Shown: positions 1,589-29,898 of the stretch, one piece after another
Numbering within the stretch: the first letter of the stretch is position 1
Layout of the letters: every line of letters starts with the position of its first letter
NCBI GenBank assembly: GCA_022113835.1
Contig: JAILWY010000008.1
Span: 9,118,501-9,182,500, forward strand
DNA length: 64,000 nucleotides
Reading direction: 5' to 3'
Source of the DNA: Atopsyche davidsoni
Lineage: Eukaryota > Arthropoda > Insecta > Trichoptera > Hydrobiosidae
The notes under the pieces: model-generated
Database searches by the model: none
Seen by the model: the letters and a program-made list of their open reading frames with translations, nothing else
Told to the model about the DNA's origin: nothing
Position numbers and translations under genes: made by a program

Positions 1589-3826
1589 TTAGTCGACTTT
1601 GTTTTCGTTGATCCAGGAGATGTAGGAGCTGACCCTGGTGAAGACGTCAGGTATGCCCCGAGCGCATTGGTGGAACCAGGAGACGATGCCCACCTGAGCA
1701 CCAGTGGAGATGTCCACCAAGGGGCCGCCTTCGTCTCCCTGGTAAAAAAATTAGTTATACTTAGATATATATTATGTAATATATTGGGAGTTAACCTGAT
1801 TTATTATGTTTTGAATAGATAAATAAATCATCCGATGAGAGAACTTACGTGGCAGGCGCCCTCATACATCTTGGTGAGGGTGCAGATATTGGACATAAGC
1901 ACGGATTCGGCTCCGGTGTGGACCTTCGCGCAAGCCTCGATCGAGATGGTCTTCACGATGATCGTCTGAAGGTCATTTTTGGGGGTACTACCGGGGAACT
2001 GTGGAAACATTCATTCTCAATTAAACTATACCAATATATCAAACAGTTTATTTCTATTGGTACTAAAGTAAACGTCTTATTAAAATTTGTTTCCGTATAA
2101 AACAAAGGTCTCAAATATTTTAGTTCCATTGACCACAAGCTGTTATTATTATTTTTTTTTTGTATACCGCTTTCTTATATTGAATTTTAACTGCAAAGGT
2201 ATACTGTACAGTGGACGTGTGAACAATTTCAAAGTAAAAAGTCTATGTAGTTGTGTTCTGTATGTCTTACGGAGGTGGTTCCCCATCCGGTCATGTTGAC
2301 GAAGACTTCTGCTCCCGTCTCGGCCTCCGAGAGGGTGATCGGCTTCACGAGGTCGGTCATCTCGATGGGAGACGACAAAATGATCAGGCCGATATCGTTA
2401 ATCTTTGTGAAATAGTAATAGTCCCCGTGAACGATCCGCTCGGAGATCTCATACCTGGTACCGCCGGCGTTCAGCTTGTTGGTCCCAGCGATGACCATTG
2501 CGAATTTGGGAGTAAGACTGTTGGAAAAAAACAATCCCATACTTTTAAATATTCTCTTTGTATATCAAAACATTCGTTTCTACTATCTCTGCGGAGTAAA
2601 GTAACATCACGCAAGCCCTTGGCGCAGTGTATGTGCTGATGTATTTCATTGCTATGGCATATAAAACAAATTATAGACAGTGACAAATATGAGTGTGCTA
2701 AATTATAGTAATCAGGTTCGAATTCCTTAAAAACTACAGCATTCACACACACACACATATATATATATAAATATATATATATATATCTACACATCGCATA
2801 AAGCAAGTATTTTTCTATAATGATTAAAGTACCTATGTATTTTGTCTTCTCTTTGAGTTTATTAAAATTTTTTGCATTACTATTTTCTACCCAATACACA
2901 GGGTCATCATCAGATTCATAACTACAAATGCAGTTTAGTTATGCATCTGATGATGACCCAGTGTATTGGGTCGAAACTAGTAATTCAATTAATTTTAATA
3001 AACTTAAAGTGAAGACAAAATACAAAGGTACTTTTATCATTATAATAATGGATCTTCACAAATCAAATGCCTTGTCCCTCAACAAGTATTTTTTTGACGG
3101 AAGAACACCAAATACGAACCCGAAGGCGCATGAGGCAGACGTCAGTATGGTCCTGGGGGTGATGATGGTCCCCGCGCATATATAGAGGTTGTTGGTGTAC
3201 CTCACGGACACCATGTAGGGGGCAGATCCCATAGCGGCATCAGAGCCTCCGGCCAAGCGCGAATCCCACTGCCCTTCACTCTCCACCGGCAAGCCTGGAA
3301 CCAAAACCATTCACATGACTTATCATTTATGACCCTTTTTACGAGAATAATAATTTTTAGATGATGTGGTTTCTTGGATAACTTCCGTTTTCAAGGAATT
3401 TTCAACAATCCTTTAAGATGGAGAGAGAAATGAAAACTCTAGCTTTTCATCACCCAAGAAACCATACAATCTGATAACAACGATTTTCTACCAAATATTT
3501 TACTAACTCATGTAAAAAATATTGTGGGCAAATAATTTACTAAAAAACCATGTTTTTAGCTACGAATGAACACTCTACTTTAGATACCAGTCATTTAATA
3601 AAATGATTTAAGAAATATATTTTTTTCTCATCCAAGTATGTAAGACTCGGTATATTCGTGTGAAAACAAAACTGTTCGGCTTGTAATGTAAAAAAAACCA
3701 TGTTTGAACTTTTATTATTTTTAGTGAACTGACAAATATAATTACACTATAAAGTACATCAATAAAAGCATGCTTACCATGGCACAAGGCCAGAGCTGCC
3801 AGCACCAAGAAGAACACTTTGCACAT
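1589..3826 (-). CDS. SPH1, non-catalytic chymotrypsin-like serine protease homologue
   Basis: Secreted S1A-fold protein that should lack peptidase activity. Minus-strand exons are 3778-3826, 3120-3294, 2271-2517, 1849-1998 and 1589-1738, giving 256 aa. Exon 1 encodes signal peptide [18 protein letters not shown] short acidic propeptide ends DSR before LAGG, replacing the usual IVGG. His57 is Ser (TSASC), Asp102 is kept (NDIGL), and Ser195 is Glu (GDEGGP). Cysteines for the 42-58, 168-182 and 191-220 disulfides are present. Gly216 is Phe (SWF). An NMT sequon precedes GWG. Intron phases 1,2,0,0 match catalytic genes A-D. The start is the first ATG after a TATA/TCAGT promoter. Intact splice sites and frame argue for a working gene. 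Function beyond binding is unknown. Confidence 0.92.
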
Positions 3827-3850
3827 TGTCAGGTATCGGCTGTCTTCCAA

Positions 3851-3884
3851 TACTGAAGCGATGTCCAGGTGGTATTTATTTATA
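3851..3884 (-). promoter_or_regulatory. SPH1 core promoter (TATA plus initiator)
   Basis: On the minus strand TATAAATA (3877-3884) lies 30 bp before an insect-type TCAGT initiator whose +1 A is near 3854. The ATG follows 28 nt later. The same arrangement is conserved in front of all eight SPH copies. Confidence 0.75.
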
Positions 3885-4100
3885 TTTGTTTTCACTATCT
3901 CAATCCTTCGAGACATTCCGTTTTGGTCGAATCTGATAACAATAAGACATCATGTATTAATTTATATTATATCAATATCCGATAAGTCTTGACTGACGAC
4001 TTTTAATTACATCACATAAACTGATTATTATTATTATGTCTTGTTAAAAACAGTTTTACTTTGATAATCTATAATTCAGCAGATATCGAATAACACATTG

Positions 4101-26822: not shown

Positions 26823-27817
26823 TTGGATAGTCTTACTGCAGCTCTAATATTTAAAAATAATTATTTACTTAGTTAAACTCTTAGAATGATCATGTATGTG
26901 ATTCAACAAAGCAGAAGCAGTAGTTATAAAACTAAAGAAACATTCGATACCAAATACCATTGAACATATCAAGCAGCCTTAAAATTAAATAAACAGCGCG
27001 TTTAACAAAAAGAAATGTTACAGTTTGATTACTACAGCATTGTTTTTTTTTACCAACAATCCATCTACATTATTGAATATGACTTAATTGTTACAGATGG
27101 TCTTTTGAGTGATGTGTCTTTTCACAACGACAGGGCAAATGCTATTTTTTTCGTCAGATATCAAACCAAAGTAGATAATCAACAAGAAGCTGTTTCACAC
27201 AGATTAAGGAGCTGATTTCATAAAATATATCAAACTTCGTTTTATATATATTTATATATTTTTTAAATTGAATGAATACTTTACTATTTAACACTAACAC
27301 ATTATGTACGAGTATGTAATGTAGGTTTTGTTAATAAGGCTTAATTTACTTGAATTTCATATATGAGAGTGAAAATAAATATATTTTTTAAATTATTTTG
27401 TAAAATATAAATTAAATTATCATTCTAAGATGTTTATTTAAAAAATAAATTTAAGTAATATTAAAGATAAATATATTGATTTTATAGTATATTTAAGTAG
27501 ACAGGTTTAATAATAAAATTCGCTATGGTGTGCATTGTATGTTATTTTAAAACATACATTAATTATTATGTAACTGTCAAAATAACTATATTCTATAAAT
27601 ATAACCTTGATTTGGTTAGATGTTTTATTTTTGTGCAATCAAATAGTGTTTTTTTTTTTTTACATAAAAGTTTTGCATTTCTCAAAAAAGTTAAGGGTAG
27701 GGCCAAAAAATACATTATACTATTTTTTGTCGGGGAGTTATATAAATTGAGGTAAAAAAATTTGATGAGATGTTTCTTTTTCAGGTGAACAAATAGAAAT
27801 TTGCCAGATCCGCTTGA

Positions 27818-27855
27818 TTATTCGATCTTATTGGCGTCGATATATCTGTAAAGAA
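27818..27855 (-). pseudogene. Relic last codons of a catalytic protease exon 5
   Basis: Only the final codons (IDANKIE then stop) and the adjoining 3' flank resemble gene A. Similarity stops after about 38 bp. It lies 0.36 kb 3' of SPH8, the same relative place as the relic next to SPH4. Confidence 0.55.
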
Positions 27856-28212
27856 GCCGAAATCTATTGTAAACATACTTTCATCCCTATATACAGGTGA
27901 TTTCCCTTTCACATATGTTTGCTCTATCTGACCAATCAAAACCAACTTGACATGAACGCCAGACAGAAAAGGTATAAAAGTTTTTTTTAAATTTTATTAA
28001 TAATATTTTTTTATTATCACAATTTTCTGTTTTTAGACATTCATATATATTATGATATTCAAATGATCTTTTGTATATTCATAGCATGCCGTGATTTTGC
28101 AGATTAAAAATCGTTAACAAGAGTTTGGTAATAATTTTTTTTTTTAATCAATAAAAATACAAAGGTATAAAAGCGATAATATCTCTAGAGGCAGTCAACT
28201 GGGATAAATAAA

Positions 28213-29898
28213 TTAGTCGACTTTGTTTTCATTGATCCAGGAGATGTAGGAGCTGACCCTGGTGAAGATGTCGGGTATGCCCCGAGCGCATTGGTGGAAC
28301 CAGGAGAGGATGCCCACCTGAGCACCAGTGGAGATGTCCACCAAAGGGCCGCCTTCGTCTCTCTAGTAAATATAAAAATAAGCTATACTTAGCTTTATTC
28401 TATGTATTTTATTGGGTTAACAGGATTTATTATGTTTTGAATAGATAAATAAATCATGCGATGAGAGAACTTACGTGGCAGACGCCCTCATACATCTTGG
28501 TGAGGGTGCAGATATTGGTCTCGAGCAAGGGATTGAGTTCGTGGAGGACCTCATAGCAACCCTGGTGTGTCATGGTCTTCAGATTGATTGTCTGGAGGTT
28601 TCTATAGAGGTTAATGCTGGGGTACTGTGCAAACACATTAAACAATTTATATCTATTTGTACTAATGTAAACGTTTGTATAATATTATGCTGAATAAGTT
28701 AATCTAAAACAAATGTATTAAAAATTTTTGCTAATTTTTTCAATTTTTTGTACACCGTTTTCCTAATATTTAATTTTTACTGCAGAGTGAACATGTGCAC
28801 AATTTTAAAGTAAAAAGTCTACGTAGTTGTATTATGTATGGCTTACCGAGCCAGTTCCCCATCCGGTGAAGTTGACTGTGACGTCTCCTCCCGTCTCGAC
28901 CTCCGAGAGGGTGATCGGCTTCACGAGGTCGGTCATCTCGATGGGAGTCGCCAGAATGATCAGGCCGATGTCGTTAATCAGTCGGCGGAAGTCATAGTCC
29001 TCGTGGATGATCACCTCGGAGGCTACATACCTGGTGCCGCCGGCGTCCAGTTTGTTGGTTCCAGCGACGACGATTATTTTGCTGGGTTTACTATAACTTC
29101 AATTTTTAAGAATAAATCAAGTTATCCTTTTCTACTATCTTTGCAGAGTAAAGTTACATCATGCAAACTCTTGGAGCAGTGTATGTGGTGCATTATTTGA
29201 TTGCTATTACATATATAACAAATTATAGACATTGAAAAATGTGAGTGTGCTAAACTATTGTAATCATGTTCACGTATATGTTAATCATCTACACATCGCG
29301 AACAGCAAGTATTTTTTGACGGTCGAACACCAATTACTAACCTGCGGACGCAATTGGCAGATGTCAGTATGGTCCTGGGGGTGATGATGGTTCCCCCGCA
29401 GAAATGTTGGTTGTATGTGGATCTCAGGGACACCATGTAGGGAGCAGATCCCTCTGCGGCGTCGGAGCCTCCCACCACGCGCGAGTCCAACTGCCCCTCA
29501 CTCTCTACAGGCGAGCCTGCAACCCAAACCATTCACATGACTTATCATTTATGATCCTTTTTATATTTTTTTGATAATAATAATTTTCAGATGATTTGGT
29601 TTCATGGGTTACTTCCGTTTTTAGGGATTTTCAACAACCCCTAAAGATGAATGGAGAAATGAAAACTCAAGCTTTTCAGCGCCCAAGAAGCCAAATAATC
29701 TGATAACAACGATATTCTACCCAATATTTTTACATTCTCTAGGGATTTTAGAACTTTTAAAAAAAAATACTGTGGGTAAAGAATATAAATGCGTGTATTA
29801 AGAAACAAATGAACAGTCTACTTTAGAAACCAGTCATTTAGTAAATATATGGAAGAAATATATTTTCTCATCCAAATATTTAAGACTGTTCGGCACAT
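28213..29898 (-). pseudogene. SPH8, homologue copy lacking its signal-peptide exon
   Basis: Exons 29342-29516, 28847-29090, 28475-28624 and 28213-28362 are open and correctly spliced. Exon 1 is deleted except for its first codons: a jump at about 29893 joins ATG-TGC to intron 1 sequence, removing the signal peptide and the intron 1 donor. His57 is Asn (TSANC), Asp102 is kept, Ser195 is Glu. Gly193 is Arg (RDEGGP), so even the oxyanion backbone is altered. An NFT sequon and Phe216 are present. The promoter survives. Exon 3 is one codon shorter than usual. A secreted product is not possible from this copy unless an unseen alternative first exon is used. Confidence 0.88.

What the first reader, a model, noticed from the sequence alone, without database searches (positions are those of the whole stretch)
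1589..29898. Tandem array of eight doubly dead chymotrypsin homologues
Seen: in eight same-strand copies Ser195 is Glu (SPH1, 3, 8) or Gln (SPH2, 4, 5, 6, 7), and in all seven copies with exon 2 His57 is replaced. Six copies keep perfect frames, splice phases, signal peptides, disulfide Cys, the activation Arg and Asp194. Known: S1A enzymes need both residues, and catalytically dead homologues can serve as cofactors or ligands. Inference: this is a selected family of secreted, proteolytically activatable non-enzymes, perhaps inhibitor decoys or cofactors for the catalytic neighbours. No clip domain is present, unlike known immune clip-SPHs.
Basis: partly seen in the sequence, partly recalled or inferred. 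Interest (0 to 1): 0.88.

Follow-up and report, generated by a model that had tools for sequence, protein, structure and literature searches.

The report
Fast-evolving array of dead chymotrypsins
An insect, probably a caddisfly, carries a row of eight copies of a digestive-type enzyme gene that can no longer cut proteins; six remain intact and are changing unusually fast around the old cutting site, which suggests they have been turned into a varied set of secreted binding proteins.

Summary
Eight same-strand chymotrypsin-fold copies lie at 1589-29898. Ser195 is Glu or Gln in 8 of 8, and His57 is replaced in 7 of 7 copies that keep exon 2. Six copies (1, 2, 4, 5, 6, 7) have complete five-exon frames; SPH3 lacks exon 2, SPH8 most of exon 1. 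Tools add four things. (1) The eight form one clade, sister to a still catalytic gene, CAT0, 1.3 kb outside the window; the GD[E/Q]G[G/S]PLV codons occur nowhere else in the genome by exact pattern. (2) Mean dN/dS is about 0.9, but this is not drift: 43% of codons are strongly constrained and 19% have omega near 6 (M1a versus M2a, 2dlnL 84; catalytic genes 0; largest of 84 null runs 23). (3) Selected sites are enriched in loops round the defunct cleft and include position 57. (4) Gly216, a wall of the specificity pocket, is Phe in 8 of 8. Best reading: a lineage-specific family of secreted pseudoproteases whose former active-site face became a diversified binding surface. Ligand, tissue and expression are unknown. 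Dead S1A expansions are known (scabies-mite SMIPP-S, beetle SPHs), so this is a new variant of a known kind. The simple inhibitor-decoy idea is weakened.

The parts
1589..3826 (-). SPH1, complete: S57, D102, E195, F216; residues 16-17 Leu-Ala
   Evidence: spliced model; residues
5338..7434 (-). SPH2, complete: S57, D102, Q195, S197, F216
8645..10020 (-). SPH3, broken: exon 2 missing, exons 1 and 3-5 present; E195, F216
11516..14594 (-). SPH4, complete: F57, D102, Q195, F216; transposase ORF in intron 2
16237..18198 (-). SPH5, complete: E57, N102, Q195, S197, F216 (all three triad residues changed)
21240..23111 (-). SPH6, complete: L57, D102, Q195, F216
24132..26460 (-). SPH7, complete: S57, D102, Q195, K215, F216
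28213..29898 (-). SPH8, 5'-truncated: ATGTGC then intron sequence, exons 2-5 open; N57, R193, E195, F216
30857..32707 (-). CATa, catalytic chymotrypsin neighbour (TAAHC, GDSGGP)
33936..36137 (-). CATb, catalytic chymotrypsin neighbour (TAAHC, GDSGGP)
51042..52225 (-). CATc, catalytic chymotrypsin-like gene, exons 2-5 (first exon not resolved)
56107..57830 (+). CATd, catalytic chymotrypsin-like gene, exons 2-5 (first exon and last codons not resolved)
1..166 (-). fragment 84% identical to CATa exon 4
   Evidence: blastn
4101..4171 (-). fragment 89% identical to CATa exon 4
10932..11105 (-). fragment 89% identical to CATa exon 5 end and 3' flank
14956..15161 (-). fragment 86% identical to CATa exon 4 (a second one at 15324-15431, 89%)
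20165..20752 (-). fragment 88% identical to CATa intron 4, exon 5 and 3' flank
27350..27860 (-). fragment 67% identical to CATa 3' end and flank

Best explanation
A duplicate of a digestive-type chymotrypsin (CAT0-like) lost both catalytic residues, most simply once, gained Phe216 in the specificity pocket, and was then amplified into eight copies. Six were kept as intact secreted, Arg-processed pseudoproteases. Shown: single clade, loss of His57 and Ser195, conserved frames, conserved fold residues, shared proximal promoter with CAT0, and positive diversifying selection enriched in the loops round the old active site, position 57 included. Inferred: the protein still folds as a chymotrypsin, is secreted in the tissue where CAT0 is expressed (most likely the gut), is cleaved after Arg15, and uses the former active-site face as a binding surface that differs from copy to copy, so that the set binds a changing range of ligands (food, prey, microbial or host proteins) without cutting them.
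For: Gene models and residues. Not drift: 0 of 1000 neutral runs keep six stop-free copies. Selection: M2a over M1a 2dlnL 84.3, 19% of 257 codons at omega 6.0; M8 over M8a 83.7; 6 of 6 leave-one-out runs 58-80; exons 2-5 on their own trees 41.3, 28.6, 6.8, 14.1; four catalytic genes 0. Null runs without positive selection, most with 10% tandem double mutations and some also with four conversion tracts: largest statistic 20.2 in 44 runs and 23.4 in 40 runs with 75-90% of codons neutral. Location: 28 of 46 sites with posterior above 0.5 lie in cleft loops that hold 65 of 227 residues, p 2.5e-7; 10 of 18 above 0.9, p 0.012; holds in both halves split by variability among enzymes, p 6e-5 and 0.005. 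Origin: CAT0 sister to the six and to all eight over exons 3-5, 100% bootstrap; omega 0.90 in SPHs, 0.14 on catalytic branches. Promoter: TATAAATA and 5' leader nearly identical in 8 SPHs and CAT0. Exact pattern for GD[E/Q]G[G/S]PLV: 7 matches in the genome, 7 of 7 in this array (SPH8 differs by its Arg193).
Against: No expression, protein or ligand data. Codon tests use six sequences of one genome and my own implementation, with naive empirical Bayes sites. The null runs had one-ratio omega 0.32-0.60, below the observed 0.93, so they are not matched in the mean. Exon 4 alone is weak (2dlnL 6.8, p 0.03). Eight of the 18 strongest sites (23, 24, 70, 82, 84, 88, 110, 169) lie outside the cleft set. 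Posterior correlates with ordinary variability among enzymes (Spearman 0.36). The cleft set is recalled, not measured on coordinates. Pairwise dN is about equal to intron divergence. Two of eight copies are broken. No dead orthologue was seen among the 120 listed relatives of 492, three of them from the nearest annotated relative, so conservation over time is unshown.
Confidence: 0.48

Rival explanations
1. Inhibitor sponge: the dead copies titrate protease inhibitors from food or parasites so that the catalytic chymotrypsins stay active; diversification tracks a changing set of inhibitors.
For: Same proximal promoter as a catalytic paralogue; selected sites include rim positions 35, 40, 60, 61, 96, 97, 144 and 152ins; catalytic targets sit beside the array. 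PMC11172050 (passages) also suggests that gut SPHs may interact with substrates or inhibitors.
Against: Phe216 in 8 of 8 should shorten the S1 pocket that canonical inhibitors fill (inference); loss of Ser195 rules out the serpin covalent trap; the four catalytic genes show no sign of the same diversification.
Confidence: 0.2
2. Reproductive proteins: seminal or female-tract pseudoproteases diversifying through sexual conflict.
For: A small S1A cluster with positive selection near the cleft is known in Anopheles female tract (PMC3068966, abstract and passages).
Against: The closest paralogue is an ordinary chymotrypsin with the same proximal promoter; no expression data either way.
Confidence: 0.15
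3. Cofactors or regulators of the catalytic neighbours or of a zymogen cascade, as clip-domain SPHs are for prophenoloxidase activation.
For: Asp194 is kept in 8 of 8 and Arg15 in 7 of 7, so the activation switch may still work.
Against: No clip or other regulatory domain in the two proteins scanned: only the Pfam Trypsin domain plus a weak overlapping DUF1986 hit in one; residue 16 is Leu or Met in SPH1 and SPH5; a cofactor of one enzyme would not be expected to diversify so fast.
Confidence: 0.09
4. Decaying array: pseudogenes drifting after loss of catalysis, with frames open by chance or youth.
For: One-ratio omega 0.93, not different from 1 (2dlnL 0.27); dN about equals intron divergence; two of eight copies broken.
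Against: 0 of 1000 neutral runs keep six stop-free copies and 1 of 1000 keeps all mature Cys; M1a beats one-ratio omega 1 by 68 log units; 43% of codons have omega 0.09.
Confidence: 0.03

Closest known systems
Scabies-mite inactivated serine protease paralogues, SMIPP-S (PMC4031079, passages and section 4; PMC4930577 and PMC4641413, passages)
   Same: Multi-copy lineage-specific family of inactive S1 paralogues of one active digestive enzyme; group 3 homologues stand head to tail in a cluster; S1 subsite blocked by one conserved aromatic (Tyr there; Phe216 here, by position only).
   Different: Mite group 3 (Sar s 3) lineage; conserved surface lies opposite the dead active site, whereas here selection is enriched at the dead active-site face; two members are shown to bind and inhibit vertebrate complement, no target is known here.
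Single-domain serine protease homologues of Tenebrio molitor (PMC11172050, passages)
   Same: 95 SPHs without regulatory regions expressed mainly at feeding stages, most with a small propeptide processed by trypsin; in the table rows seen several have bulky residues at 216.
   Different: Described by sequence and expression; no E/Q195 plus F216 array and no selection test appeared in the passages seen.
Anopheles gambiae female reproductive-tract protease cluster (PMC3068966, abstract and passages)
   Same: Small S1A cluster with positive selection at sites near the catalytic triad and pocket edge.
   Different: Three genes treated there as proteases, compared between species; not a dead array.
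Fire ant chymotrypsin 1eq9
   Different: Active enzyme complexed with PMSF; no loss of triad.
Clip-domain SPHs (recalled)
   Same: Secreted, catalytically dead S1A domain with an activation site.
   Different: No clip domain found here; the clip-A SPH rows seen in PMC11172050 keep His57.

Membership tests
S1A chymotrypsin family (fold) | Trypsin domain by profile and conserved disulfide Cys | tested here: met
   Pfam PF00089 1.5e-40 and 2e-43 for the two proteins scanned, SPH1 and SPH7; six mature Cys invariant in six copies and two catalytic genes.
Active S1A peptidase | His57, Asp102, Ser195 | tested here: not met
   His57 lost in 7 of 7, Ser195 in 8 of 8, Asp102 also in 1 of 8.
Serine protease homologue (SPH) | S1A domain with one or more triad residues replaced, expressed gene | tested here: inconclusive
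   Replacement met; open frames and conserved promoter; expression not testable here.
Clip-domain SPH | N-terminal clip domain | tested here: not met
   About 12 residues between signal-like peptide and Arg15 in the models; Pfam finds no clip domain in SPH1 or SPH7.
Gut single-domain SPH | No regulatory domain, basic activation site, gut expression | not testable with these tools
   First two features fit; tissue unknown.
SMIPP-S | Common descent with mite group 3 serine proteases | tested here: not met
   Sister to CAT0 with 100% support (no mite sequence was in these trees); best database relatives are insect chymotrypsins, led by Arctopsyche grandis; Der p 3 ranks below fire ant chymotrypsin among solved structures.
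SMIPP-S | S1 subsite blocked by a conserved aromatic residue | tested here: inconclusive
   Phe216 in 8 of 8, but no structure of an SPH was made.

The most novel reading that the evidence does not exclude
A caddisfly has turned a dead digestive protease into a small germ-line recognition repertoire: six intact secreted pseudoproteases whose former catalytic cleft, including the catalytic histidine position, evolves under diversifying selection like the binding face of an immune or venom protein, in contrast to SMIPP-S, where the conserved functional face lies on the other side of the molecule.
Probability: 0.35. Interest if true: 0.8.

Novelty: new variant of a known kind. Interest (0 to 1): 0.6.

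Why it matters
Single-domain protease homologues make up a large share of some insect protease sets (125 of 269 sequences in Tenebrio are SPHs, PMC11172050), yet what they do is mostly unknown. An array with its catalytic sister gene next door, a shared promoter, most simply one inactivation, and mapped fast-changing residues gives a before-and-after system in which a new binding function of a dead enzyme can be tested directly. Diversifying selection at the old catalytic histidine position argues that the dead site is in use, not merely decaying.

Tried and rejected
Neutral decay was tested and rejected. The null runs had one-ratio omega 0.32-0.60, below the observed 0.93. Recombination was also handled by fitting exons 2-5 each on its own tree. 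A reading that whole catalytic copies decayed between the SPHs was dropped: only 3' parts (exons 4-5) of CATa-like genes were found between them; matches to CATa exons 2-3 all fall in an SPH or catalytic gene and exon 1 matched only CATb (hits of 60 bases or more, E 1e-5), so the duplicated unit probably held only a gene end. The entropy correlation failed (undefined values) and was redone. Two C3 clusters with weaker matches were fetched; the four exon-5 pieces matched there read GDSGG or GDSGS. Literature searches on dead S1A families and their selection, and on caddisfly chymotrypsins or serine protease homologues, showed no matching report in their listings (open-licence library only, capped lists). 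No structure of an SPH was predicted; only the catalytic relative P0001 was folded, so plugging of the pocket by Phe216 is inference.
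Full report
What was checked. A motif scan of all six frames and a splice-aware protein-to-DNA alignment found eight minus-strand chymotrypsin-fold copies between 1589 and 29898, flanked by catalytic genes CATa and CATb at 30.9-36.1 kb and, farther off, CATc and CATd. SPH1, 2, 4, 5, 6 and 7 are complete: five exons, intron phases 1,2,0,0, no frameshift, no internal stop and a TAA after the last codon. SPH3 has no exon 2. 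SPH8 reads ATGTGC and then intron sequence, so its signal-like peptide is gone, and it has Arg at 193.

Residues. Numbering is by alignment to bovine chymotrypsinogen A. Position 57 is S,S,F,E,L,S,N in the seven copies with exon 2. Position 195 is Glu (codon GAA) in SPH1, 3 and 8 and Gln (CAA) in SPH2, 4, 5, 6 and 7. Asp102 is kept except in SPH5 (Asn). Asp194, Asp226 and the four Cys of exons 3-5 are kept in 8 of 8; the two Cys of exon 2 and Arg15 in 7 of 7. Gly216 is Phe in 8 of 8, and SPH7 also has Lys at 215. Changes fixed in the six intact copies at positions conserved in 60 enzymes include A55S (Ala in 60 of 60) and G216F (Gly in 53 of 60). PMC11172050 (passages) says that 189, 216 and 226 set the S1 pocket, that G/G/D is characteristic of insects, and that Phe or Tyr at 216 should in theory make the pocket less deep; the triplet here is G/F/D.

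Where it lies. The window is C8:9118501-9182500 of a 370.7 Mb genome in 80 contigs. Of the 120 best relatives listed (492 matched), one, P0005, reads as replaced at both residues; in ten others one of the two motifs was not read by the script. Among 212 proteins returned in two searches residue 195 is Ser in 207, Phe in 1, and no motif was read in 4. A search of the genome with SPH6 listed 77 matches; outside C8 the best was 66% identical over one exon. An exact 23-base pattern for GD[E/Q]G[G/S]PLV found 7 matches in the genome, 7 of 7 in this array; SPH8 escapes it through Arg193.

The catalytic sister. Just left of the window, at C8:9117173-9115631, is CAT0, with the same exon phases, the same leader and propeptide words (LPVESEGQW), TAAHC and GDSGGP. 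It is 61-69% identical to the six SPHs and their sister with 100% bootstrap, on a short branch; over exons 3-5 it is sister to all eight, also 100%. So the eight copies trace to one CAT0-like duplicate, most simply inactivated once. The last 100 bases before the ATG, with TATAAATA and a TTCAGT start-like element (element names recalled), are nearly the same in eight SPHs and CAT0 and differ in CATa and CATb. This suggests shared expression; it does not show it.

Selection. Pairwise dN/dS among the six is 0.87-2.34, against 0.36 for CATa versus CATb, and dN is about equal to divergence in introns 3 and 4. One-ratio omega is 0.93, not different from 1. Site models tell another story: 43% of codons at 0.09, 39% at 1 and 19% at 6.0, 2dlnL 84.3. 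The result holds with M7/M8 (90.0), M8a/M8 (83.7), a star tree (102), six of six leave-one-out runs (58-80), exons 2-5 each on its own tree (41.3, 28.6, 6.8 and 14.1, so exon 4 only weakly), and the eight copies over exons 3-5 (73.4). Four catalytic genes give omega 0.14 and no signal. Null simulations without positive selection, with up to 10% tandem double mutations and four conversion tracts, never passed 23.4 in 84 runs (44, 40). Their one-ratio omega was 0.32-0.60, even with 90% of codons neutral, so they are not matched to the observed 0.93. Neutral drift at intron rates would leave a mean of 15.9 stops in the six copies; 0 of 1000 runs kept all six open. The codon program is my own, not PAML, and site calls are naive empirical Bayes.

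Where selection acts. Sites above 0.9 are 23, 24, 35, 40, 57, 60, 61, 70, 82, 84, 88, 96, 97, 110, 144, an insertion at 152, 169 and an insertion at 175. Ten of these 18 lie in loops round the cleft, a set recalled from textbook subsites that holds 65 of 227 residues (p 0.012); at 0.5 it is 28 of 46 (p 2.5e-7). Because loops vary in enzymes too (Spearman 0.36), I split residues by variability in enzymes: enrichment remains in the variable half (20 of 34, p 6e-5) and the conserved half (7 of 11, p 0.005). Positions 40 and 57, His in 60 of 60 enzymes, vary here. By contrast 195 is only Glu or Gln in all eight, which hints that it has a role of its own.

Surroundings. Between and beside the SPHs lie fragments of CATa-like 3' ends: exon 4 at 1-166, 4101-4171, 14956-15161 and 15324-15431; exon 5 and flank at 10932-11105, 20165-20752 and 27350-27860. 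The array therefore probably grew by block duplication of a unit that held an SPH and a piece of its catalytic neighbour.

Reading. The best account is a lineage-specific pseudoprotease family kept for binding, using the old active-site face. Single clade, loss of the catalytic residues and selection are shown; fold is supported by profile and sequence, and only a catalytic relative was modelled; secretion, processing, tissue and ligand are inferred. Compared with SMIPP-S, whose S1 site is closed by a conserved Tyr and whose conserved surface is opposite the dead site (PMC4031079, section 4), the face where selection is enriched here is the dead site itself. Compared with the 95 Tenebrio SPHs without regulatory regions expressed at feeding stages (PMC11172050, passages) it adds a genome array with its catalytic sister and a selection map. 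Hence a new variant of a known kind.

Noticed in passing
window 40973-42376: Perfect tandem array, period 399, 3.5 copies at 100% match, carrying four tRNA-Ser(UGA)-like genes; very recent, or an assembly duplication.
   Followed up: partly
window 12873-13496 (-): Open reading frame of 207 aa with a transposase DDE domain (PF01359), mariner-like by recall, inside intron 2 of SPH4.
   Followed up: partly
C8:9117173-9115631 (L011), 1.3 kb left of the window: Intact catalytic chymotrypsin CAT0, sister of the whole dead array.
   Followed up: yes
window 43200-43421, 56623-56850, 59937-60242: Repeated ORF words (IRHISS.IEDD) with tRNA matches near one of them; looks like a repeat element, perhaps tRNA-derived.
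   Followed up: no
window 19320-20027 (-): ORF of 235 aa with a borderline match to the STPR repeat domain (PF21107) upstream of SPH5.
   Followed up: no
CAT0, CATb and SPH exon 5: CAT0 and CATb exon 5 have short branches, and SPH2/SPH5 and SPH1/SPH8 exons 5 are near identical, which may reflect gene conversion.
   Followed up: partly
G000 C30:1108226-1127351, C22:884356-927145, C11:7539910-7643930: Other clusters of trypsin-domain exons in the same genome, some frames with stops; not examined for dead triads.
   Followed up: no
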